This document shows, piece after piece, positions 1 to 56,760 of a stretch of DNA of 56,760 nt. Position 1 is the stretch's first letter, and each line of letters opens with the position of its first letter. Origin of the DNA: a virus. The notes under the pieces are model-generated. The model did not search any database, was not told the origin of the DNA, and was given only the letters and a program-made list of their open reading frames with translations. The position numbers were made by a program, and so were the translations under genes. Where the stretch lies: positions 1 through 56,760 of IMG/VR virus record IMGVR_UViG_3300011116_000470; one strand, 5' to 3'.

Positions 1-127
1 CCCCATCGGGCTCACCCTAAACCAAGCCTACACCACGGCTACTTATTACGGTAACGCCACGCTGCCTTCTACAGTGCGTGCGCAGCTTGTGATCTGGGGC
101 AGCGGCGTGGGCGCGTTGTCGCTACCA
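1..127. repeat. Left copy of the 127-bp terminal overlap
   Basis: These bases are identical to the last 127 bases of the window (56634-56760). The open frame running off the right end continues in phase here, so the two ends are the same place on a circular map. A length of exactly 127 is a common assembler k-mer size, so this is most simply an assembly overlap rather than a biological terminal repeat. Confidence 0.95.
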
Positions 128-10108: not shown

Positions 10109-10155
10109 AAGGTTCTCCGGTTAGTGTAACTTTAGGTTTGAGTATAATGCAAACC
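10109..10155. promoter_or_regulatory. Divergent promoter/operator between two small genes
   Basis: A perfect TATAAT at 10143-10148 reads rightward. TATACT at 10146-10141 reads leftward, so two -10-like boxes overlap back to back. No good -35 is seen for either. A short inverted repeat, GTTAGTGTAAC (10120-10130), sits between the genes, and AAGTTACAC on the minus strand (10132-10124) also occurs at 24502. The arrangement resembles a compact lysis-lysogeny or early-late switch. Confidence 0.55.
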
Positions 10156-10356
10156 ATGACCCTAGCCGAATACTTTAAAACCGATGTGCGCGGTGCCAAG
10201 AGCGAGATGGCCGAGTACCTCAAGATCACGCCCACATGGATGGCGCTGCTTGTCGCAGGCAAGCGGCAAGCCTCTCCCGTGCTGGCGCTGGCTATTGAGA
10301 AGGCTACTGGGGGGCTGGTGACTCGGCAGGAACTTCGTCCTGACATCTTTCGGTGA
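10156..10356 (+). CDS. YdaS/Cro-like HTH regulator
   Basis: The 66-residue protein (MTLAEYF start) matches the YdaS/Cro-like pattern: an N-terminal helix, a helix-turn-helix around GAKSEMAEYLKITPTWMALL, then a SPVLALAIEKATGGLVTRQ helix and an RPDIF end. Proteins of this family bind DNA as small repressors or antirepressors in prophages and phages. I chose ATG 10156 because the TATAAT at 10143-10148 would start the transcript at about this base, giving a leaderless mRNA; ATG 10147 lies inside the -10 box. It converges on, and overlaps by about 50 bp, the small gene at 10304-10477. Confidence 0.75.
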   Translation: MTLAEYFKTDVRGAKSEMAEYLKITPTWMALLVAGKRQASPVLALAIEKATGGLVTRQELRPDIFR

Positions 10357-16687: not shown

Positions 16688-16841
16688 GTGGGTATCTCCA
16701 TAAATCCACAACACAATTGTTGTGGCGAGGCGATCTTACATCACATTTTGGGCAGTTGCTGTAACTTTTTAAAAAATATTTGTTGTAAACCACAACTTTC
16801 TGTTGTAGGATCGGGCTCTCTACAACTTTTTGGAGTAAAAA
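16688..16841. promoter_or_regulatory. Divergent early control region with repeated ACAAC/GTTGT half-sites
   Basis: This 154-bp region separates the leftward replication operon from the rightward early operon and is AT-rich in its centre. Six half-sites occur: ACAAC at 16708, 16792 and 16822, and GTTGT at 16719, 16782 and 16802. A rightward promoter candidate is TTGTAA (16784-16789), 16-bp spacer, TAGGAT (16806-16811). A leftward promoter may lie near TTACAG (16766-16761) with TAAGAT-like bases downstream, but its spacing is poor. Half-sites overlap both, as expected for repressor control. Confidence 0.65.
16706..16725. promoter_or_regulatory. Palindromic operator candidate
   Basis: CCACAACACAATTGTTGTGG has perfect 8-bp arms (CCACAACA / TGTTGTGG) around four central bases. 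It sits 19 bp in front of the first leftward gene, so a bound protein would block that transcript or its initiation. Its core ACAAC-N6-GTTGT recurs at 24509-24524 and, with one mismatch, at 22102-22117. Confidence 0.7.
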
Positions 16842-17045
16842 ATGATGCGCCGCATAGGACTACGCGAACTGCTCAAAGAGCCGTTCAAAAAGCCAACACC
16901 GCTAGAGGTGATCGCCGCCGAGTTAGCAGAGGCCCATCTGGCCAAGCTGCAAGCAGAGACCGGAGTCGAGTACGCCCAGTCCATCGTGGACTATAACGTC
17001 AACCGAATCACGCGGCTCAACGCCCGCATGGAGGAATACAAATGA
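16842..17045 (+). CDS. First rightward early gene, small helical protein
   Basis: The 67-residue product is basic at the N-terminus (MMRRIGLRELLKEPFKKP) and then helical with charged residues. GGAG lies six bases before ATG 16842; a second ATG follows directly. It ends in an ATGA overlap with the next gene. Similar small proteins with a LEVIAAELAEAHLAKLQAET-like helix are common in phage early regions, without known function. Confidence 0.75.
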   Translation: MMRRIGLRELLKEPFKKPTPLEVIAAELAEAHLAKLQAETGVEYAQSIVDYNVNRITRLNARMEEYK

Positions 17046-17266
17046 AAGACGAGATTGCAGGTGCGATTTACGCCAAGGAATACACCGATTGGCACATCAA
17101 GACGGGTGGCTTTGCGCGGGACATGACACTGCGTGACCACTTTGCGGGGCTGGCTATGCAAGGGATGATATCAAGCGGCAACCTACCGGTGTCAGTAAGT
17201 GATGAAGAGATTGCAGATGCCGCATACGAAATGGCAGACTTAATGCTTAAGGAGCGCAACAAATGA
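17042..17266 (+). CDS. Small conserved phage protein with DHFAGLAMQ motif
   Basis: The 74-residue protein contains TLRDHFAGLAMQGMI (about 28-42) and a C-terminal EEIADAAYEMADLMLKER helix. This pair of motifs is a familiar phage and prophage small-protein signature of unknown function. It is coupled to both neighbours by ATGA overlaps. Confidence 0.8.
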   Translation: MKDEIAGAIYAKEYTDWHIKTGGFARDMTLRDHFAGLAMQGMISSGNLPVSVSDEEIADAAYEMADLMLKERNK

Positions 17267-17640
17267 AAAAACTTATCGCTATCACCGCTGCTGTAGCAGC
17301 ACTTGCGGGTTGTTCCTCGGACGCAGACATTGCATCACGCAATATGTCCAAGGCGGCAGACCAGTTTGAAATCACGCGCCGTGTGGTGTTTTACAACGGC
17401 ATCACTGGCGACTACGTGCTGACTGTCGAGGGCTTGTGTTCGTTGGGCAATTACGACAACCACAGGGGACTGTCCATCACTTGCAAGGTAGGGCCGAATA
17501 GCTACAAGAAGCACTTCCTTGGCCTGTCCGACAACGTGACTTATTTTGTCGAGCAGTTGGAAGCCAAGCCAGCCAGTGTGTACCACTACCGTGTGATATT
17601 TAAACCCGCTGCAATCATTCCTGATGTGGAGGTCAAATGA
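17263..17640 (+). CDS. Predicted beta-sandwich lipoprotein
   Basis: The 125-residue protein starts with a lipoprotein signal peptide (MKKLIAITAAVAALAGCSS) whose lipobox LAGC puts the modified Cys at residue 17; the SS after it favours outer-membrane sorting. The mature part (NGITGDYVLTVEG...KKHFLGLSDNVTYFVEQL) is beta-rich and matches a phage lipoprotein family often named beta-sandwich lipoprotein. Early expression plus envelope location would suit superinfection exclusion, but no evidence here proves that. It is linked to both neighbours by ATGA. Confidence 0.85.
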   Translation: MKKLIAITAAVAALAGCSSDADIASRNMSKAADQFEITRRVVFYNGITGDYVLTVEGLCSLGNYDNHRGLSITCKVGPNSYKKHFLGLSDNVTYFVEQLEAKPASVYHYRVIFKPAAIIPDVEVK

Positions 17641-17822
17641 CTGAATACAACCCTTACGTGGCTGAATACAAACTTCACGTACCGCCGTCGCCTGTTGGGT
17701 ATTGGGTGTTGTACGCCGAAGCGCCGCAGCAAACTATGTTTGCTATGTATCACAAACCCACAGACGAGCAGATTGCCAACACCGAACGGTTGCTAGGCTG
17801 GACATGGAAGGACGCAAAATGA
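17637..17822 (+). CDS. Small early protein, unknown
   Basis: The 61-residue protein is rich in Tyr and Pro at its N-terminus (MTEYNPYVAEYKLHVPPSPVG) and ends in a Trp-containing helix. It starts in the lipoprotein stop (ATGA) and ends in an ATGA with the next tiny gene. No family is recognised. Confidence 0.65.
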   Translation: MTEYNPYVAEYKLHVPPSPVGYWVLYAEAPQQTMFAMYHKPTDEQIANTERLLGWTWKDAK

Positions 17823-17914
17823 ACACATGGCCCTTTCCCACCACGCCACTACCCGATAAGCCCTACAAGCGAGTACCCGTTAACCCTGACAACTACGAGG
17901 ATGCACCACTATGA
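17819..17914 (+). CDS. 31-residue proline-rich microprotein
   Basis: MNTWPFPTTPLPDKPYKRVP and then a short polar end: a Pro-rich peptide of 31 residues. ATGA overlaps on both sides fit it exactly between its neighbours in the translationally coupled string, the main reason to call it. A longer frame in the same register upstream (from 17702) is probably a shadow of the 17637 gene. Confidence 0.6.
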   Translation: MNTWPFPTTPLPDKPYKRVPVNPDNYEDAPL

Positions 17915-18132
17915 ACTGCTGTAACGCAAACGGAGACTGCACACAAGGTAAAGACTGCCCTGTACGCAAGCAGCGCATCAAAGAAATCAATGATGCCTAC
18001 GCCAACGGGTTTAAAGACGCACAGATAGATGACCCGATAGACGATCTCGCCCACACATTCAAGGGATTGATAACCTTGCTTACGGTGGTGCTTTGTGTGT
18101 GGGTCGTGTACTTACTTATTTGGGGGAAGTAA
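17911..18132 (+). CDS. Cys-rich small membrane protein
   Basis: The 73-residue protein has an N-terminal Cys cluster (C3, C4, C10, C16 in MNCCNANGDCTQGKDCPVRK), a charged middle, and one C-terminal membrane segment (LITLLTVVLCVWVVYLLIW, about 53-71). The Cys-rich part would probably face the cytoplasm and could bind metal. Similar short Cys-plus-TM proteins are frequent in phage early regions. ATGA upstream and TAATG downstream tie it into the operon. Confidence 0.75.
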   Translation: MNCCNANGDCTQGKDCPVRKQRIKEINDAYANGFKDAQIDDPIDDLAHTFKGLITLLTVVLCVWVVYLLIWGK

Positions 18133-18347
18133 TGAACATCATTGAACTAGCGAAACAAGCGGGGTTTCAAGACGCAGATTGGAATTACATCAAAGCCCTT
18201 GCAAAGTTTGCCGACTTGGTAGAAGCAGCAGCCCGTGCTGACGAGCGCGAAGCGTGTGCCAAGCTGTGCGATGAAGTCGGCAAAGAAAGCCTAAGCCAAT
18301 GGCCCTACAGGTTTGCAAACATGATTAGAGCAAGGGGAACAACATGA
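18132..18347 (+). CDS. Small protein with EREACAKLCDE motif
   Basis: The 71-residue protein contains ADEREACAKLCDEVG (about 36-50), a helical motif seen in many short phage and bacterial proteins of unknown role. A related EREECARLADEAE appears at 24217. The TAATG overlap fixes the start at 18132; an earlier in-frame start at 18093 would overlap the membrane protein. Confidence 0.75.
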   Translation: MNIIELAKQAGFQDADWNYIKALAKFADLVEAAARADEREACAKLCDEVGKESLSQWPYRFANMIRARGTT

Positions 18348-18427
18348 CAGGCTACCAATCTTATTGCGTGTACTGCAAGCGTCCCGTGTACACAATACTA
18401 ACCAAGTGTAGGAGTTGCGGAAAATGA
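18344..18427 (+). CDS. 27-residue zinc-ribbon microprotein
   Basis: The peptide has two CxxC pairs (C8/C11 and C22/C25), a minimal zinc ribbon. It begins in the previous stop (ATGA), ends in an ATGA with the next gene, and shares its MTGY start with that gene, which also has two CxxC pairs. A zinc-bound fold of this size is plausible; its target is unknown. Confidence 0.65.
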   Translation: MTGYQSYCVYCKRPVYTILTKCRSCGK

Positions 18428-18786
18428 CAGGGTACAAATCAAAATGCGATATGGCGCAGGACAAGTTAGCACAGCCAGCGCTGGAGCCTAATTGGACTTG
18501 TAACGAATGCGGAGCGCAGGAATTTACATCAGCGCTGTCTGAAGCTGACCTTGACTATCTCGCGTGTGCAAATTGTGGTGGCAACGAATTTCACAAAGAA
18601 ACCTTGGCACAGCCAGTGCAGGATATGGAGTTTGCGAGGATTCGAATACAAGTGGGCAATAAGTTCGTCGAAGGATTATTGACGCACGCGCAATTGCTTC
18701 GTGCAGACAATCCTTGGGCGTTAATCGAACACAAAGTCGCAATATGCGTTGCCACACTAAAGGAAATATATGAGCAAAAAACTTAA
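18424..18786 (+). CDS. Zinc-ribbon early protein with LAQP segments
   Basis: ATG 18424 overlaps the previous stop; an upstream TTG is unlikely. The 120-residue protein has a Cys4 zinc ribbon (CNEC about 28-31 and CANC about 51-54) flanked by two LAQPA/LAQPV segments (about 15 and 64), which also occur in the next gene. The C-terminal half (RIRIQVGNKFVEGLLTHAQLL) is a small mixed alpha/beta region. It may bind nucleic acid or host RNA polymerase; this is inference. Confidence 0.7.
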   Translation: MTGYKSKCDMAQDKLAQPALEPNWTCNECGAQEFTSALSEADLDYLACANCGGNEFHKETLAQPVQDMEFARIRIQVGNKFVEGLLTHAQLLRADNPWALIEHKVAICVATLKEIYEQKT

Positions 18787-19075
18787 AGAAGCCTTGGCAC
18801 AGCCAGCGCAGGAGCCTGTGGCTTGGATGTACGACTGGCTTTGTGACGGCAAGCTAATTACAGGATGGATTGCGCACAGTGAATCCGAGATTCCCAAATC
18901 AATGGCATTCAACATCCGCCCTCTCTACACCACCCCACCACAGCGCATATGGGTAGGGCTTACGGATGATGAAATTAAAAAGATATGTGAAAAAAACAAA
19001 TGGGACAGTAGTTGGCAATCTTTGCGGTTTGCTCGTGCAATTGAAGCCGCACACGGTATAAAGGAGAACACATGA
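18770..19075 (+). CDS. Small LAQPAQEPVAWM family protein
   Basis: The 101-residue protein contains LAQPAQEPVAWMYDWL and later PLYTTPPQRIWVGLTDDEI, a pairing very common in small proteins of Burkholderiales phages and prophages and one basis for the host guess. The function is unknown. It overlaps the previous gene by 17 bp and the next by an ATGA. Confidence 0.75.
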   Translation: MSKKLKEALAQPAQEPVAWMYDWLCDGKLITGWIAHSESEIPKSMAFNIRPLYTTPPQRIWVGLTDDEIKKICEKNKWDSSWQSLRFARAIEAAHGIKENT

Positions 19076-19278
19076 AAGTACACCACCTTAAAGACTGGAA
19101 CGCTACTGCCATGCTTACCCATGCGCTAGAGCGCATAGCGCCTGAGCAATCTTGCGTTGTGCTGTTTTACGAAGATGGCGAACTTAAAAAACTATCGGCC
19201 CATGTGGACAACCAACACGCCGTGTGGATGTACGAAATTGCAAAGCTGACTGTGTTGCATGAATGCCTTGCCCATTAA
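19072..19278 (+). CDS. Small early protein, unknown
   Basis: The 68-residue protein contains a CVVLFYEDGELKKLSAH beta-hairpin-like segment and ends HECLAH. It starts in an ATGA overlap. No domain is recognised. Confidence 0.65.
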   Translation: MKVHHLKDWNATAMLTHALERIAPEQSCVVLFYEDGELKKLSAHVDNQHAVWMYEIAKLTVLHECLAH

Positions 19279-19290
19279 AGGAAAAGAACA

Positions 19291-19554
19291 ATGCGTAAGT
19301 CAACCCATGCCGACATCCGCGAGGCGCTGCGAAAGATGCCCGATGGGCTTACCATCGTGGCCATTTGCTACATGACCGGGCTGCGCGGCAGCACCGTGCG
19401 CCAAGCACTGCCCAGCATGCCCGATGTGTACATCGACCGCTGGGAGAAGACTGCCAAGACCAAGGGCTACCGAGCCATCGCTTGGCGACCGGTGTACATC
19501 GCCGTGCCCGTGCCGCCGAACCAACCAAAACCCACTAAAGAAAGCAAACCATGA
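19291..19554 (+). CDS. Small winged-helix-like protein
   Basis: The 87-residue basic protein has a helix-turn-helix-like region (IREALRKMPDGLTIVAICYM...STVRQAL) followed by a beta-wing-like segment (YIDRWEKTAKTKGYRAIAWR) and a Pro/Lys tail. This suggests sequence-specific DNA binding. AAAGGAAAAG supplies the ribosome site. It is coupled by ATGA to the following YdaS-like gene, so the two may act together. Confidence 0.6.
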   Translation: MRKSTHADIREALRKMPDGLTIVAICYMTGLRGSTVRQALPSMPDVYIDRWEKTAKTKGYRAIAWRPVYIAVPVPPNQPKPTKESKP

Positions 19555-19763
19555 CCGGAATCGAAGAAGCCATCCATGCCGTGGGCTCACAAGCCCAACT
19601 GGCCGACATCCTAGGCTGCACGCAGCAAAACGTGAGCAAGATGCTCAGCAACGGCTACGTGCCCACCAAGTGGGTCAGGGCCGTAGAGCAGGCCAGCGGC
19701 ATCCCGCGTGAGCGCCTGATCAACCCGGCACTGGCCGAGTTGCTTGCGCCCACGGACATCTGA
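19551..19763 (+). CDS. YdaS/Cro-like HTH regulator (second copy)
   Basis: The 70-residue protein shows the family pattern clearly: SQAQLADILGCTQQNVSKML (helix-turn-helix, about 13-32), YVPTKWVRAVEQASGIPRER and an INPALAELL end. It is a likely repressor or antirepressor of the early region. It is distinct in sequence from the one at 10156, so the genome has two such regulators but no visible integrase. Confidence 0.85.
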   Translation: MTGIEEAIHAVGSQAQLADILGCTQQNVSKMLSNGYVPTKWVRAVEQASGIPRERLINPALAELLAPTDI

Positions 19764-19872
19764 TAGACTGTTCGGTGGACACGGCTAGGACTGGGGTAGC
19801 TCCCCCGCCCGAAAAGCGAACTACCCCCGCCTGCCGCTGTTTCTTCTTTGGGGTACGTTGCTGGGTAGAACA
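19764..19872 (+). promoter_or_regulatory. Intergenic region before the primase gene
   Basis: This 109-bp gap can form a stem GGGGTAG (19793-19799) with CTACCCC about 20 bases later. There is no T-tract. No convincing promoter is seen; TAGACTG near 19765 is a weak -10 candidate. The following start codon has only a poor ribosome site, so the fold could affect translation. Confidence 0.3.
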
Positions 19873-21924
19873 ATGACAAACACAACGCCAGACTTGCCAC
19901 CGATTGGCCAAGTCTTCAACGGGGACAACATCCCCCAAGAGCTCAAGGCCCTGCGCCGTTGGGCCGTTTGGAAGGCCATCTGGAACGAGAGCCGCCAAAA
20001 GTACGACAAGGTGCCCTACAACGCCATGCACCGGGGGCTCTCCACCAAGAACGTGTCCGACTGGGGCGACTACGAGAGCGCTGCGGCCACGCTGCGCCTG
20101 AACCCTTCGCGCTACCACGGGCTTGGGCTGGTGCTCACCGACATATCGGACGTGGTGGGCATCGACCTTGACGAGTGCCGCGCCAACGGCCAGATCGCGC
20201 CATGGGCGCGGGAGGTTGTTGAGGCCATGGGCAGCTACACCGAGATCAGCCCAAGCGGCACAGGGCTGCGCATTCTGGCCACAGGGGCCACCAACACGGA
20301 CTGGAACAACCACGACGTGGGGATTGAGGTCTATGGCGGCCATACGGCCCGTTTCCTGACGATTACGGGCCACACCTCCAAGCCCCGGCCCATGGCCCCG
20401 GCCAAGGCCGAGGTGCTGGCCAACTTGTTCGAGCAGTACGGCAAGACGCGCAAGGCCGCGCCCGTGATTCAGATCGCCATGCCCGAGCTTATCCACGAGA
20501 TGGCCTTGCCGGACGTGCAGGACATGGACATCCCCGAGGCCACCCGAGAGTTGCTGCTGCACGGGCCGAGCGAGGACGTTACCGACCGCTCCGCTGCCCT
20601 GCACGCCGCTGGTGTGCAGCTTTACAGCGCCGGGTACGACGACGCCACGGTGCTGTCCATCCTTGCGGCCAGCCAGCCGGTCATGGACATCGCGCTGGCC
20701 CACCGCAACAAAGACCCCGAGCGGGCCATGACGTACTTGTGGGTTGAGCACTGCCAAAAGGCCAAGCCCAAGGCCACTACCAAGGCCACCATTTTGGCCG
20801 ACTTTGACGACCTCACCAGTGACCCGGAGGTGGCCGCACAGCTAAAAAAGTCCAACGAGGCCAAGGCCGCAAAAGAGAGCCGGTTCAAGCTAGAGACGGC
20901 ATCGGAGTTCGTAGTGCGCCGCAAGGCCTCGTGGATCATCAAGGGAGTGCTGCCCAACGCCAACTTGGGCGTTATCTATGGGGCTTCAGGCTCGGGCAAG
21001 TCGTTCTTTGCTTTTGAGCAGGCAGCGGCGATCGCCCGTGGCATCGACTGGCGCGGCCACCGCACCACCAAGTCCAAGGTCTGCTGGGTGGCCGCAGAGG
21101 GCCAAGAGGACATGCGCAAGCGGGTGGCCGGGTACTGCGTACACCACGGCATAGACCCCTCGCAGCTTGAGAACCTGTACTTCGTGGCCAACGCGCCCAA
21201 CTTGCTGGACATAGAGGACACGCGGGCGCTGGTCAAGCAGATAAGGGTTCAGGGCGACTTTGACCTCGTGGTGATGGACACGCTGGCCCAAGTCATGTCT
21301 GGGGGCAACGAGAACAGCGGCGAGGACATGGGCAAGGTGCTGGGCCACTGCAAGGAGATCACCCGGCTCACCAACGCCATGGTCGAGTTGATCCACCACA
21401 GCGGCAAGGACGAGTCCAGAGGGGCACGGGGCTGGTCAGGCCTGCGGGCCGCGTGTGACTTTGAGTTTGAGGTCATCCGGGCCGAAGAAGAGCGTGTGGC
21501 CATCGTGACCAAGATGAAGGGCGGGGCCGACGGCGAAGAGTTTGGCTTTAGGCTTGAGACCATCGTGGTGGGGCAGGACGAGGATGGCGACGACGAGACG
21601 ACCTGCGTGGTGGCCTTCACCGATGGCAGCAGACAGTCCGTGGCGGCGTCCAAAGGCCCCAAGGGTGACACCAACGCGCTGGTGTTCCAGACGGCCAAAG
21701 ACCTGATTGATTTCGGTGGCGAGAGCCCCGTTACCGAGCACGAATTGATCACGGCAGCGGTGAGCAAGATGCCGGTGGCGGAGGCCGGGAAGCGCGATAC
21801 AAGGCCCCAGACTGCCCGGCGGAGCTTGAAATCGCTTATTGAGGGCGGGTTTTTGGTTCAGAATGCTCTTGGCCATGTGACGGTTTTTGGTGGCACGAAG
21901 CCGCAAAACAATGCGTATAAGTAA
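19873..21924 (+). CDS. PrimPol / RepA-like ATPase, probable primase-helicase
   Basis: From ATG 19873 the protein has 683 residues. The N-terminal domain (about 20-190) has the primase-polymerase signature GIDLDE (96-101, metal Asp residues), PSGTGLR (127-133) and EVYGGHTARFLTITG, like phage NrS-1-type PrimPols. The C-terminal domain (about 335-540) is a RepA-like RecA-fold ATPase: Walker A GASGSGKS (370-377), Walker B LVVMDT (466-471), then HHSGKDESRGARGW (509-522). Combined, it would prime and open DNA at the origin. An origin-like palindrome array follows directly. The ribosome site is weak (GGGTAGAAC), so expression may be kept low. Confidence 0.85.
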   Translation: MTNTTPDLPPIGQVFNGDNIPQELKALRRWAVWKAIWNESRQKYDKVPYNAMHRGLSTKNVSDWGDYESAAATLRLNPSRYHGLGLVLTDISDVVGIDLDECRANGQIAPWAREVVEAMGSYTEISPSGTGLRILATGATNTDWNNHDVGIEVYGGHTARFLTITGHTSKPRPMAPAKAEVLANLFEQYGKTRKAAPVIQIAMPELIHEMALPDVQDMDIPEATRELLLHGPSEDVTDRSAALHAAGVQLYSAGYDDATVLSILAASQPVMDIALAHRNKDPERAMTYLWVEHCQKAKPKATTKATILADFDDLTSDPEVAAQLKKSNEAKAAKESRFKLETASEFVVRRKASWIIKGVLPNANLGVIYGASGSGKSFFAFEQAAAIARGIDWRGHRTTKSKVCWVAAEGQEDMRKRVAGYCVHHGIDPSQLENLYFVANAPNLLDIEDTRALVKQIRVQGDFDLVVMDTLAQVMSGGNENSGEDMGKVLGHCKEITRLTNAMVELIHHSGKDESRGARGWSGLRAACDFEFEVIRAEEERVAIVTKMKGGADGEEFGFRLETIVVGQDEDGDDETTCVVAFTDGSRQSVAASKGPKGDTNALVFQTAKDLIDFGGESPVTEHELITAAVSKMPVAEAGKRDTRPQTARRSLKSLIEGGFLVQNALGHVTVFGGTKPQNNAYK

Positions 21925-21995
21925 AAAATTGCGTGCAACAGTTGCAACAGTTGTGCAACAGTTGCAATCTGTTGCCTGTTGCAGATGCAACAGTT

Positions 21996-22022
21996 GCAAC
22001 ACACCCCTTTAGGGGGTGTTGC
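21996..22022. other. Strong hairpin inside the origin-like region
   Basis: GCAACAC(A)CCCC pairs with GGGGGTGTTGC around loop TTTA: 11 bp with one bulged A. No T-run follows in either direction. It may be a replication structure or a transcription barrier rather than a normal intrinsic terminator. Confidence 0.6.
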
Positions 22023-22101
22023 ATGTTGCAAGGCCAGTTGCGTTGCTGTTTGTAATTATTTACAAAAACTATCGGTGGAAGGAAAACAATAAAAATTTTT
22101 T

Positions 22102-22140
22102 ACAAAAAAGTTGTTGTACAAGCAAAAAGTCGTGTACACT
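22102..22140 (+). promoter_or_regulatory. Promoter with overlapping operator
   Basis: TTGTTG (22111-22116), an 18-bp spacer and TACACT (22135-22140) make a reasonable sigma70-type promoter for the genes from 22199. ACAAA-N6-GTTGT (22102-22117) overlaps the -35 and matches the operator-like motif at 16708 and 24509 with one mismatch. Confidence 0.55.
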
Positions 22141-22198
22141 TCAGCCATCGCAGCAAAAACTGCGGTACTTCTTAAACACACATACTTGGAGTATCAAA

Positions 22199-22483
22199 AT
22201 GGCTAAAGCAAAACTGGTGGTGGAATTGAATGAAGGATCGGTGGATCGTCTGGGTGTCTTGCTCGCACAGATCGCTGACCTTACCGAGCAAGCCGACGCG
22301 ATCAAAGACGCGATCAAGCGCGGCGGACAGTCCATCGAAGGCAGCCTATTCAAGGCCACCTTGGTGGACTCTGACCGCAAGGTCTTTGATAAGGAGTTCT
22401 TCGTTGAGCAAAACGGTGCCGACGTCTACGACGCCTACACCAAAAACACCGTCAGCGTTTCCGTCCGCGTCACATCCCGTTAA
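22199..22483 (+). CDS. Small early protein, unknown
   Basis: The 94-residue protein (MAKAKLVVELNEGSVDRLGV start) has a helix rich in Ala/Ile/Asp (LAQIADLTEQADAIKDAIKR) followed by beta segments. GGAG lies before ATG 22199; the frame is open far upstream through the origin-like region, but that part is noncoding in character. It may bind DNA or a replication partner, given its position. The family role is not known. Confidence 0.75.
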   Translation: MAKAKLVVELNEGSVDRLGVLLAQIADLTEQADAIKDAIKRGGQSIEGSLFKATLVDSDRKVFDKEFFVEQNGADVYDAYTKNTVSVSVRVTSR

Positions 22484-22503
22484 ACCAACCCTAGGAGCAC
22501 ATC

Positions 22504-23367
22504 ATGATCCGTTACGCAACATCTTCCCAGCAGTCCACCTTTCGCAGCCAGTCTGCCCTGTCCAACGAACAGATCGCCTACTACGCCCCCAGCGTGATGG
22601 CCAGCGAGGCCCACGAGAGCCGTGGCGAGCGCTACAGCTTCATTCCCACGATCCAAGTGATCGACGGCCTGCGGGCCGAGGGCTTTCAGCCCTACGAGAT
22701 TCGCCAGACCAAGGTGCGCGATGCCGGTAAGCGTGAGCACACCAAGCACATGGTTCGCATGCGCCACGCCAGTTCCATCGTGGCCGATGAGGTGCCCGAG
22801 ATCATCTTGCTCAACAGCCACGATGGCACATCGAGCTACCAGATCATGTCGGGCGTGTTTCGTTTTGTCTGCTCCAACGGCCTGATCGCTGGCGATATGT
22901 TCAACAACATCAAGGTTCGCCACAGCGGCAACGTGGTGGGCGATGTGATCGAAGGCGCGACCCGTGTGCTCGAAGACGCCAAGCAGATCGGCAGCCGCAT
23001 CGACGAGTACAAGGCCATAACCCTTAACTACGACGAGCAGACAGCTTTTGCTCGGGCGGCGCTGCAACTGCGCTGGGGCGATGACCAGCCCGTGGTGCCC
23101 GGCAGCATCTTGCGGCCCAGCCGCTGGCAAGACCGCGAGGACAACTTGTGGACGGTGTACAACCGCGTGCAGGAGAACATGATGAAAGGCGGCGTGCGCG
23201 GGCGCAGCGCAACTGGCCGTCGCACCACCACCCGCGCCGTGGGCGGCGTCACCGAGAACGTCAAGCTCAACAAAGCGCTGTGGACGCTGGCCGATACCAT
23301 GGCGGCTTTGAAGCTGGACAAGGCCACCGACCAGTTCATTGAGCAGTACGAGCACGCCTACCTGTAA
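22504..23367 (+). CDS. DUF932 family protein
   Basis: The 287-residue protein matches DUF932: SNEQIAYYAPSVMASEAHES, then RYSFIPTIQVIDGLRAEGF, KHMVRMRH, EIILLNSHDGTSSYQIMSGV FR and CSNGLI, in that order (about 20-145). The family is widespread on phages and plasmids, often called phage/plasmid-like protein; its activity is not settled, though links to DNA transfer or protection from host defence are discussed. AGGAG precedes ATG 22504. A second half (about 150-287) is more variable and basic (GRRTTTRAVGG). Confidence 0.9.
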   Translation: MIRYATSSQQSTFRSQSALSNEQIAYYAPSVMASEAHESRGERYSFIPTIQVIDGLRAEGFQPYEIRQTKVRDAGKREHTKHMVRMRHASSIVADEVPEIILLNSHDGTSSYQIMSGVFRFVCSNGLIAGDMFNNIKVRHSGNVVGDVIEGATRVLEDAKQIGSRIDEYKAITLNYDEQTAFARAALQLRWGDDQPVVPGSILRPSRWQDREDNLWTVYNRVQENMMKGGVRGRSATGRRTTTRAVGGVTENVKLNKALWTLADTMAALKLDKATDQFIEQYEHAYL

Positions 23368-23374
23368 CCCCAAC

Positions 23375-23390
23375 GGCCCCCTCGGGGGCC
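23375..23390. other. GC hairpin after the DUF932 gene
   Basis: GGCCCC / GGGGCC with loop CTCG forms a 6-bp stem eight bases after the stop. There is no T-tract, so it is more likely an mRNA-stabilising element or weak attenuator than a terminator. Confidence 0.5.
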
Positions 23391-23406
23391 ACAACCGGAG
23401 AAGACC

Positions 23407-23562
23407 ATGGAATTTTCGACCCTTACCCTGCAAGAGCGCGAGCGCTTGGCCTACATCGGCGGCGACACCAAGCTGGCCCGAATGCTGGCCGAGCAGATAG
23501 AGCTACAAGAGGAGCTGGATGAGGCGCTGGACGAGCTGTACAAGAAGGAGAACGATCTGTGA
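23407..23562 (+). CDS. 51-residue acidic coiled-coil protein
   Basis: MEFSTLTLQERERLAYIGGD is followed by a long Glu/Leu-rich helix (LAEQIELQEELDEALDELYK). CCGGAGAAG gives a good ribosome site. The stop overlaps the next start as GTGA. Small and unknown, but codon use and coupling support it. Confidence 0.65.
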   Translation: MEFSTLTLQERERLAYIGGDTKLARMLAEQIELQEELDEALDELYKKENDL

Positions 23563-23681
23563 GATACCGCGAGCACTACCAAATCCACAAGCCTATGAAG
23601 CCGCTACCCTACGCCATCGCTTGGCTGGCCCTTACACTTGTCTTTGCCCTGCTGGGCATAACCATTGCCTACTGGATGTGA
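23559..23681 (+). CDS. 40-residue single-pass membrane peptide
   Basis: GTG start in a GTGA overlap. After a basic, Tyr-rich head comes one membrane helix (AIAWLALTLVFALLGITIAYW). The positive N-terminus predicts an N-in topology. The function is unknown; small early membrane peptides sometimes affect host envelope or superinfection. Confidence 0.6.
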   Translation: MRYREHYQIHKPMKPLPYAIAWLALTLVFALLGITIAYWM

Positions 23682-23683
23682 TC

Positions 23684-23908
23684 ATGGCCACAAAAACCCC
23701 CACCAAGGCCGTTAAAACGGCCCAAAACGAGCCCGAAGCGGTGACAGAGTACCGTATGCCCACCGAGGTGGCCAACTGGATCAAGCAGGCCGAAAGCCGC
23801 CTTGCCTACCTGACCACCACGGTCGAGAGGCTCAAGGCCGAGAACGCAGGCCTGCGCAAAGCCAACAAAGTCATGGAGGCCCGCGTGATGGGCCAGTCGC
23901 AGGAGTAG
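23684..23908 (+). CDS. Small coiled-coil protein
   Basis: The 74-residue product has a basic disordered head (MATKTPTKAVKTAQNEPEAV) and a coiled coil (LAYLTTTVERLKAENAGLRK). ATG 23684 follows the previous stop by two bases; the frame is open further upstream but overlaps two genes there. Probable oligomer; function unknown. Confidence 0.65.
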   Translation: MATKTPTKAVKTAQNEPEAVTEYRMPTEVANWIKQAESRLAYLTTTVERLKAENAGLRKANKVMEARVMGQSQE

Positions 23909-23911
23909 ATC

Positions 23912-24217
23912 ATGGAATTTGAACCAACCGAGCAAAACCTGCGCGACATTCACGAGCAGGCCGTAATAATCGAAGACATTTTCAAAGAGCATGCCGATAA
24001 AATCAGAGACGAATTTGGCGTAAAAATAGCCATAAATGTTTTTATGAACGCGGGCATCTCTAGTATTGCGTTGGGGCTGGCGTTAATCAAAGACGACGAA
24101 GTAGAACGGCTTGCGGCCCTACTACGGGTAGTTATAGCCATCGGGGCCCTGACAGAGATCATGCTAACTGAGCAACAAGCCCAAGAAATAATTAAAAAAG
24201 TAATGGAGAAAAAGTAA
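23912..24217 (+). CDS. Helical early protein, unknown
   Basis: The 101-residue protein is almost all helix. Its hydrophobic middle (GISSIALGLALI and LRVVIAIGAL) is too short and broken for confident membrane segments. A charged C-terminus ends KKVMEKK. It shares a TAATG overlap with the next gene. Base composition is more A/T-rich than its neighbours. No family recognised. Confidence 0.65.
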   Translation: MEFEPTEQNLRDIHEQAVIIEDIFKEHADKIRDEFGVKIAINVFMNAGISSIALGLALIKDDEVERLAALLRVVIAIGALTEIMLTEQQAQEIIKKVMEKK

Positions 24218-24468
24218 TGGAAAACAAAGAACTGAGCCCCCTCGCCCGGCAGCTACTTGGCCATGCCAACGTCATGCCGATGTTCACCCAGCGCGAGTTT
24301 GACAAGGCGCTGGCCGAGGCCAAGGCCGAGATCATGGCCATCGCCATCCAGACCACTAGGCAGGCCATCGCCATCGAGCGCGAGGAGTGCGCTCGGCTGG
24401 CCGACGAGGCCGAGCAACACGAGTTGGCCACGGCCATTAGGCAAAGGCTATCAGGCAAGCCGCATTGA
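24217..24468 (+). CDS. Small protein with EREECARLADEAE motif
   Basis: The 83-residue protein contains LARQLLGHANVMPMFTQREF and a helix AIAIEREECARLADEAEQHE, related to the motif at 18132. The TAATG overlap fixes the start. The role is unknown. Confidence 0.7.
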   Translation: MENKELSPLARQLLGHANVMPMFTQREFDKALAEAKAEIMAIAIQTTRQAIAIEREECARLADEAEQHELATAIRQRLSGKPH

Positions 24469-24501
24469 TAAAAATGTTTTCAGCAAATAAATTTAAACTT
24501 T

Positions 24502-24529
24502 AAGTTACACAACAAAAAGGTTGTATACT
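24502..24529 (+). promoter_or_regulatory. Promoter with ACAAC-N6-GTTGT operator candidate
   Basis: TATACT (24524-24529) is a good -10 for the genes from 24561; the -35 is weak (TAAGTT at 24501-24506, 17-bp spacer). The inverted repeat ACAAC-AAAAAG-GTTGT (24509-24524) fills the spacer, so a bound protein would exclude polymerase. AAGTTACAC (24502-24510) also occurs in the 10.1-kb switch. Confidence 0.6.
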
Positions 24530-56214: not shown

Positions 56215-56760
56215 ATGACCACTTACACGAACCCGTTCACCGGCCAGACTATTAGCCCCTCGTCGGTAAGCTACGAGTCCATCACGCTATCGGGCAACCT
56301 GACGCTTGAATGGCCGATAAACGGCAACGACGCCACTCCGGTCAGCAGCATCCTTGATGTGACGGCCACCGCGCCGGGTTTCAACTTGGCGCTGCCGCCC
56401 GCAACGCAGGTATCGACTGGCCAGACTGTCATCGTGCGCAACATCGGCCTCTTGGCCAACACGTTCACGGTGACGGACTACACGGGCGCTACCATCATCT
56501 TGGTGTCCTCTGGCGTTGCTCAGTTCATCTTCTTGACCGACAACAGCACGGAAGGCGGCACTTGGTCGTCCGTGGTGCTGGGCGCGGGCACATCATCGGC
56601 CAACGCCGCAGCGCTTGCTGGGTACGGCCTGACCCCCATCGGGCTCACCCTAAACCAAGCCTACACCACGGCTACTTATTACGGTAACGCCACGCTGCCT
56701 TCTACAGTGCGTGCGCAGCTTGTGATCTGGGGCAGCGGCGTGGGCGCGTTGTCGCTACCA
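56215..56760 (+). CDS. Virion structural protein, 5' part of the gene crossing the junction
   Basis: This is the N-terminal part (MTTYTNPFTGQTISPSSVSY) of the protein that resumes at base 2; the frames match exactly when the 127-bp overlap is joined, and the whole protein is 424 residues. The head LEWPINGNDATPVSSILDVT and VSTGQTVIVRNIGLLANTFT V are beta-rich, like tail proteins. It follows the adaptor gene by two bases. Because it has no stop in this window, it could easily be missed. Confidence 0.85.
   Translation, partial: MTTYTNPFTGQTISPSSVSYESITLSGNLTLEWPINGNDATPVSSILDVTATAPGFNLALPPATQVSTGQTVIVRNIGLLANTFTVTDYTGATIILVSSGVAQFIFLTDNSTEGGTWSSVVLGAGTSSANAAALAGYGLTPIGLTLNQAYTTATYYGNATLPSTVRAQLVIWGSGVGALSLP
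56634..56760. repeat. Right copy of the 127-bp terminal overlap
   Basis: Identical to bases 1-127. It lies inside the gene that crosses the junction, not in a packaging or intergenic region, which argues against a true terminal repeat. Confidence 0.95.

What the first reader, a model, noticed from the sequence alone, without database searches (positions are those of the whole stretch)
16706..24529. A regulon marked by ACAAC-N6-GTTGT at three early promoters
ACAAC-ACAATT-GTTGT (16708-16723), ACAAA-AAAGTT-GTTGT (22102-22117, one mismatch) and ACAAC-AAAAAG-GTTGT (24509-24524) each overlap or adjoin a promoter candidate and have the same 6-bp spacing. Extra half-sites pack the 16.7-kb divergent region. 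One phage repressor could therefore set both early operons, the genes after the origin and the 24.5-kb genes. The origin palindrome GCAACAGTTGC shares the CAAC/GTTG core, so replication and transcription may share a regulator.
Basis: partly seen in the sequence, partly recalled or inferred. Interest (0 to 1): 0.6.

Follow-up and report, generated by a model that had tools for sequence, protein, structure and literature searches.

The report
Cro-like operators at four phage early promoters
A freshwater bacterial virus marks its early promoters with one repeated DNA landing site, probably bound by a small virus-made off-switch protein that shuts down early genes, its own gene included; the nearby replication-origin repeats are a separate system, probably read by the DNA-copying enzyme itself.

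Summary
Perfect ACAAC-N6-GTTGT sits at 16708-16723 and 24509-24524, a one-mismatch copy at 22102-22117. In related IMG/VR phages the sites recur at the same promoters: P_L 28/30, P_R 29/30, P_B 26/37 with at most one mismatch, against about 2% in shuffles. The invariant core is ACAA-N7/8-TTGT. The likely reader is the 70-aa Cro/YdaS-like protein at 19551-19763: its recognition helix (TQQ) resembles that of phage 434, and operators change when this gene changes (a Caulobacter phage with HQ has GCAA-N8-TTGC; relatives with a replaced HTH have TAGC..GCTA). No integrase or CI-type S24 repressor was found, so it looks like a Cro-only early shut-off. At P_L the palindrome is also a conserved RNA hairpin in the mRNA leader. 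A shared replication/transcription regulator is not supported: origin repeats come in at least six sequence types while operators stay constant, and the type tracks the C-terminal ~80 aa of the primase-helicase. No binding was measured.

The parts
16708..16723 (.). O_L: ACAAC-ACAATT-GTTGT, operator just downstream of the leftward promoter P_L; also the stem of a conserved hairpin near the 5' end of the leftward mRNA
   Evidence: (28/30 relatives)
16733..16738 (-). predicted -10 of P_L (TAAGAT on the - strand)
   Evidence: conserved as TAAGAT/TATGAT in most relatives; not mapped
16792..16806 (.).
   Evidence: 29/30 relatives
16782..16786 (.). extra GTTGT half-site overlapping the -35 of P_R, conserved in relatives
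22102..22117 (.). O_B1: ACAAA-AAAGTT-GTTGT, upstream copy at the promoter P_B after the origin
22118..22133 (.). O_B2: ACAAG-CAAAAA-GTCGT (2 mismatches), next to the -10 TACACT at 22135-22140; this position holds the better copy in many relatives
24509..24524 (.). O_C: ACAAC-AAAAAG-GTTGT, running into the -10 TATACT at 24524-24529 of P_C
19551..19763 (+). Cro/YdaS-like HTH protein, 70 aa, recognition helix TQQNVSK; proposed repressor of all four promoters, encoded in the P_R operon
10156..10356 (+). second YdaS-like HTH protein, 66 aa, ATG 7 nt after TATAAT so probably leaderless mRNA
10125..10141 (.). second operator type, TGTAAC-TTTAG-GTTTGA (2 mismatches to TGTAAC-N5-GTTACA), immediately upstream of the -10 of the 10156 promoter
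19873..21924 (+). primase-helicase; its C-terminal ~80 aa (about 21673-21921) co-vary with the origin repeat type
21930..22050 (.). origin repeats (GCAACA/TGTTGC type); shown here for contrast, judged not part of the operator regulon

Best explanation
The sites are operators of a Cro-type lytic repressor, core ACAA-N7/8-TTGT (ACAAC-N5/6-GTTGT in the best copies). The repressor is most likely the 70-aa Cro/YdaS-like protein of gene 19551-19763. P_L and P_R fire first, giving the replication proteins and a run of small genes that ends in the repressor and the primase-helicase. As the repressor accumulates it binds between -35 and -10 (P_R), at the -10 (P_B, P_C) or just downstream of the start site (P_L), blocks RNA polymerase, and turns off the early and replication transcripts and its own gene. 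No integrase and no CI-type S24 repressor were found, so this is probably an early-to-late timer rather than a lysogeny switch. Shown by computation: the sites, their conservation, their geometry and their co-variation with the HTH gene. Inferred: start sites, binding, repression and timing.
For: Sites at orthologous promoters in 28/30 (P_L), 29/30 (P_R) and 26/37 (P_B) non-redundant relatives with at most one mismatch, against 1.5-2.4% in dinucleotide shuffles. ACAA/TTGT is invariant at three promoters that are not homologous to each other. The 19551 protein matches Cro structures, Xfaso1 best, and all close orthologues have [ST]QQ in the recognition helix, as in 434 (own knowledge). In L057, L080, L200, L207 and L208 ACAA/TTGT elements lie directly in front of this gene. 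In Caulobacter phage GB2A the homologue has HQ and the gaps hold GCAA-N8-TTGC, same geometry. In L066, L074 and L075 a different HTH sits there and the dyads are TAGC..GCTA. No integrase or S24 repressor in the window.
Against: No binding or transcription data. The Q-to-H change is a single event in four near-identical phages, and two homologues with PQ (L065, L302) keep ACAA-type half-sites. Promoters are not picked up by a generic scan. The second HTH protein, 10156, is more strongly conserved than 19551 among the relatives and could bind too. In some distant phages ACAAC-containing elements lie in front of 10156 homologues.
Confidence: 0.68

Rival explanations
1. The reader is the 10156 YdaS-like protein, or both small HTH proteins bind the same operators in competition, as CI and Cro do in lambdoid phages.
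For: 10156 is highly conserved (76-100% in the close group), probably leaderless like cI and paaR2 (PMC8630535), and resembles YdaS of CP-933P, whose sites overlap those of PaaR2 (PMC8630535). In distant relatives ACAAC-containing elements lie at promoters of 10156 homologues.
Against: In the window's group the 10156 promoter carries a different element, TGTAAC-N5-GTTTGA. L080, L207 and L208 have the ACAA/TTGT dyads directly in front of the 19551-type gene.
Confidence: 0.2
2. The sites are only conserved promoter parts or sites of a host regulator, not operators of a phage protein.
For: The sites overlap -10 and -35 elements; no binding was measured.
Against: The dyad sits at different places relative to the -10 in each promoter, and the half-site changes when the phage HTH gene changes.
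Confidence: 0.06
3. The P_L palindrome is only an RNA hairpin in the leader of the leftward mRNA and not an operator.
For: Flanking positions co-vary and all pairs are standard in the leftward mRNA sense; the flanks do not pair at P_R and P_B.
Against: The ACAA/TTGT core does not vary at all and is the same as at P_R, P_B and P_C, where the site is upstream of the start. A dual role is more likely.
Confidence: 0.05
4. One regulator controls both the operators and the origin palindrome.
For: Shared CAAC/GTTG core in the window and nine other loci with GCAACA-type origins.
Against: About 30 loci have other origin repeats and unchanged operators. Repeat type tracks the primase C-terminal domain (0 of 2000 permutations).
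Confidence: 0.03

Closest known systems
Phage 434 Cro/repressor and their ACAA-N6-TTGT operators (own knowledge; structure 2OR1 cited in PMC3317979)
   Same: Small HTH protein with TQQ at the start of the recognition helix; ACAA/TTGT half-sites; operators over early promoters
   Different: Spacing N7/N8 instead of N6; four dispersed promoters; no CI found; protein closest in fold to Xfaso1 Cro
Xfaso1 Cro / P22-N15-type Cro (3bd1, 1rzs, 6on0)
   Same: Best structural matches of the 19551 model
   Different: Sequence match weak (E 0.3); their operators were not compared here
YdaS/PaaR2 of E. coli O157:H7 CP-933P (PMC8630535; 8c7k, 8co2)
   Same: 10156 matches YdaS by sequence and fold; probable leaderless regulator gene as for paaR2 and cI
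   Different: No paaA/parE toxin-antitoxin genes were recognised beside it; not divergent from a Cro gene; its promoter has its own operator type
Lambda CI/Cro switch as in relatives L066 and L074
   Same: Same place in front of the primase gene; divergent early promoters
   Different: S24 repressor domain found in L066 and L074, absent from the window and five relatives
Phage P4 alpha protein (origin part only; own knowledge)
   Same: Primase, helicase and origin-repeat reader in one protein, reader at the C-terminus
   Different: RepA-type (AAA_25) helicase, not SF3; repeats directly 3' of the gene and apparently exchanged together with the domain

Membership tests
Cro-type lytic repressor with operators | Small HTH protein of Cro fold encoded in an early operon | tested here: met
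   gene lies in the P_R operon
Cro-type lytic repressor with operators | Dyad operators over early promoters, including its own | tested here: met
   promoters inferred, not mapped
Cro-type lytic repressor with operators | Protein binds these operators and represses early transcription | not testable with these tools
   Only co-variation is available:
Lambda-type lysis/lysogeny switch | CI-type repressor with S24 domain, divergent from cro | tested here: not met
   No PF00717 match in the window; found in L066 and L074
Lambda-type lysis/lysogeny switch | Integrase | tested here: not met
   No PF00589 or PF00239 match
434-type operator | ACAA-N6-TTGT, 14 bp | tested here: not met
   ACAA/TTGT invariant but spacing is N8 or N7; works like it, not a member
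YdaS_toxin (PF15943) | Profile match over the curated cut-off | tested here: met
   Both 10156 and 19551; the family name reflects a toxicity that was not tested here

The most novel reading that the evidence does not exclude
A CI-less relative of the lambda switch: one 434-like Cro protein times the early programme of a probably virulent phage group through operators at four dispersed promoters, one of which is at once an operator and a conserved mRNA leader hairpin; beside it, origin specificity is a swappable cassette made of the primase-helicase C-terminal domain plus repeats placed 3' of its gene.
Probability: 0.4. Interest if true: 0.65.

Novelty: new variant of a known kind. Interest (0 to 1): 0.5.

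Why it matters
If true, a large uncultured phage group has an early regulatory map readable from sequence alone: four promoters, one operator code, one likely reader. Because the operator and its probable reader vary together across relatives, the group is a natural test set for recognition-helix rules of Cro proteins. The dual operator/leader-hairpin element predicts coupled control of transcription and message stability. The origin cassette gives a direct, testable answer to how these phages choose their origin.

Tried and rejected
(1) Shared regulator for operators and origin: rejected, since origin repeats vary in type while operators do not. (2) 19291 product as HTH repressor: no Pfam or PHROG match. 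(3) Generic promoter scan: no excess over shuffles. (4) First coding/noncoding enrichment: the ORF mask called some promoter sites coding because of long spurious ORFs; replaced by the orthologous-promoter count. (5) A wider genome search for more 19551 homologues to extend the co-variation test: 11 of 274 genomes matched, nearly all weakly, and gave nothing usable. (6) Relatives through the Caulobacter primase: only two, partly informative. (7) Rfam on the early region: no match. (8) No open-access text on the 434 Gln28 contact was found, so that contact rests on own knowledge; Hall, Lefevre and Cordes 2005 is known here only through PMC4997575.
Full report
WHAT THE WINDOW IS. The window is a virus record of 56,760 bp with a 127-bp direct terminal repeat, so it is probably a complete genome. 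Its early region runs leftward from about 16.7 kb (16298, DUF2800, DUF2815, DNA polymerase A, VRR-NUC, SNF2 helicase) and rightward (about ten small genes, the HTH gene 19551, the primase-helicase 19873). Next come gene 22199, a DUF932 gene and further small genes; the terminase genes begin at about 25.3 kb. Relatives in IMG/VR keep this order. A contig of a Burkholderiales MAG carries the same segment, so the host is probably of that order; this is inference.

THE OBSERVATION. Chance expectation for perfect N5/N6 sites is 0.1. The 22.1-kb promoter has two tandem copies, 22102-22117 and 22118-22133; the second lies next to the -10.

CONSERVATION. In 140 related loci the spacing distribution peaks sharply at 6 and 5 (overlapping loci are counted more than once there). 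In non-redundant relatives with primase identity of 55% or more, a site with at most one mismatch is present at P_L in 28 of 30, at P_R in 29 of 30 and at P_B in 26 of 37; dinucleotide shuffles of the same segments give 1.5, 2.0 and 2.4%. P_L is N6 and P_R is N5 in every one of these hits. P_C has the element in L021 and L027 at a somewhat later position, just upstream of a small gene. Position by position, ACAA/TTGT is invariant at P_L, P_R and P_B and the fifth base is not (the sites were gathered by that core, so the fuller test is the mismatch count). The core is therefore ACAA-N8-TTGT, or N7 at P_R.

GEOMETRY. P_R: -35 TTGTAA, 17 bp, -10 TAGGAT, with the operator in the spacer. P_B and P_C: the operator abuts or enters the -10 (TACACT, TATACT). 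P_L: the operator lies just downstream of the predicted start. All are positions from which a bound dimer would block RNA polymerase. The -10/-35 calls come from conservation; the generic scan does not find them.

WHO READS IT. Two YdaS/Cro-like proteins are encoded, and an HTH_3 search adds no further one. The 19551 protein is next to the primase in nearly all relatives, with [ST]QQ at the start of its recognition helix in all close ones. Its model matches Xfaso1 Cro best, then N15 Cro and the 434 repressor domain. In 434, the glutamines of this helix contact ACAA (own knowledge). Three comparisons point to it. First, distant homologues with TQQ or SQQ have ACAA/TTGT elements in front of their own gene, three of them in L207 and in L208. 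Second, the Caulobacter phage GB2A homologue has HQ, and its intergenic gaps hold GCAAC-N6-CTTGC-like sites of the same 16-bp geometry; with at most one mismatch to GCAAC-N6-GTTGC there are six matches in 19 kb, five in gaps and one in coding DNA. Third, in L066, L074 and L075 another HTH protein is found near this place and the dyads in front of it are TAGC..GCTA, with no ACAA..TTGT. Limits: the Q-to-H change is one event, and two PQ homologues (L065, L302) keep ACAA-type half-sites.

THE SECOND REGULATOR. The 10156 protein (66 aa) resembles YdaS of CP-933P. TATAAT lies 6-7 nt before its ATG in the window's group, so its mRNA is probably leaderless, as for cI and paaR2 (PMC8630535). Its promoter carries TGTAAC-N5-GTTTGA. 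Perfect TGTAAC-N5-GTTACA occurs at the P_C-region promoter in many relatives, with a single spacing peak (28 at N5, redundant loci included). It is read here as a second operator type, probably autoregulatory for 10156; this is less certain. Whether the two proteins compete at some promoters is open.

LIFESTYLE. No tyrosine integrase, resolvase-type recombinase or S24 repressor domain was found in the window, and no S24 domain in five relatives of 54-111 kb, two of which are near-duplicates. L066 and L074, which share the replication genes, do have an S24 domain; in L066 it is a CI-like gene divergent from a YdaS-like gene, with three dyads between them. So the window's group looks like a Cro-only version.

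LEADER HAIRPIN AT P_L. Two flanking positions at O_L vary while staying paired (CG, AU, GC, GU and CG, UA), and the inner pair varies only to U-G. All 147 cells are standard pairs when read in the sense of the leftward mRNA, and 0 of 500 shuffles reach the observed covariation score (all 21 rows of the alignment were found in the loci). At P_R and P_B the same positions mostly do not pair. The P_L palindrome is thus most likely both an operator and the stem of a hairpin near the 5' end of the message (-7 to -12 kcal/mol). The start site is predicted, not mapped, and cells count sequences, not independent events.

ORIGIN. Downstream of the primase lie 5-10 copies of a hexamer. In 41 loci the type is GCTTCA (23), GCAACA (10, window included), TTCCAG (3), GGATCA (3), GCTTCC (1) or GGTGCA (1). 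Within the primase-helicase only the C-terminal ~80 aa track the type: 0.65 against 0.32 identity in aa 601-650, with differences of at most 0.10 in every bin up to aa 600. L018 and L025 are 95% identical over aa 1-600 but 32% in the C-terminal domain, and have different repeats; 0 of 2000 label permutations reach the observed residual (permutations ignore phylogeny). The operator core does not change with origin type. This argues that the primase-helicase itself reads the repeats and goes against the shared-regulator idea.

JUDGEMENT. The regulon is real. The system is of a known kind, a Cro-type repressor with dyad operators, in a variant form: CI-less, four dispersed promoters, wider ACAA spacing, one operator inside a leader hairpin. 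The origin cassette may be the more unusual part.

Noticed in passing
window 21930-22050 and 21673-21921: Origin repeats differ in sequence type among relatives and the type co-varies with the C-terminal ~80 aa of the primase-helicase, as if both were exchanged as one cassette (L018 and L025: 95% identical over aa 1-600, 32% in the C-terminal domain).
   Followed up: yes
window 10125-10156; L005:14474, L021:14395, L027:14650: A second dyad, TGTAAC-N5-GTTACA, recurs at the P_C-region promoter of relatives and in degenerate form at the 10156 promoter, which seems to make a leaderless mRNA.
   Followed up: partly
window 16706-16725: The P_L operator can also form a conserved 7-bp RNA stem near the 5' end of the leftward mRNA, with compensatory changes only outside the ACAA/TTGT core.
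   Followed up: yes
L287 (Caulobacter phage GB2A, OR260089.1 8000-27000): Intergenic gaps of this cultured phage hold GCAAC-N6-CTTGC-type sites (locus 805, 2019, 3556, 7707, 12974), apparently the same kind of operator with a changed outer base.
   Followed up: partly
window 16760-16775: TGTAACTTT between P_L and P_R is conserved in most relatives; it resembles one half of the second operator type. Role unknown.
   Followed up: no
L252, L257, L260, L265 and others, upstream of the 10156 homologue: In distant phages the promoter of the 10156 homologue has TACAACCCCCTTGCA-like elements before TATGAT; L252 has ACAAC-N4-GTTGT (ACAACGGGGGTTGT).
   Followed up: no
window 1-127 and 56634-56760: 127-bp direct terminal repeat: the record is probably a complete genome.
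   Followed up: yes
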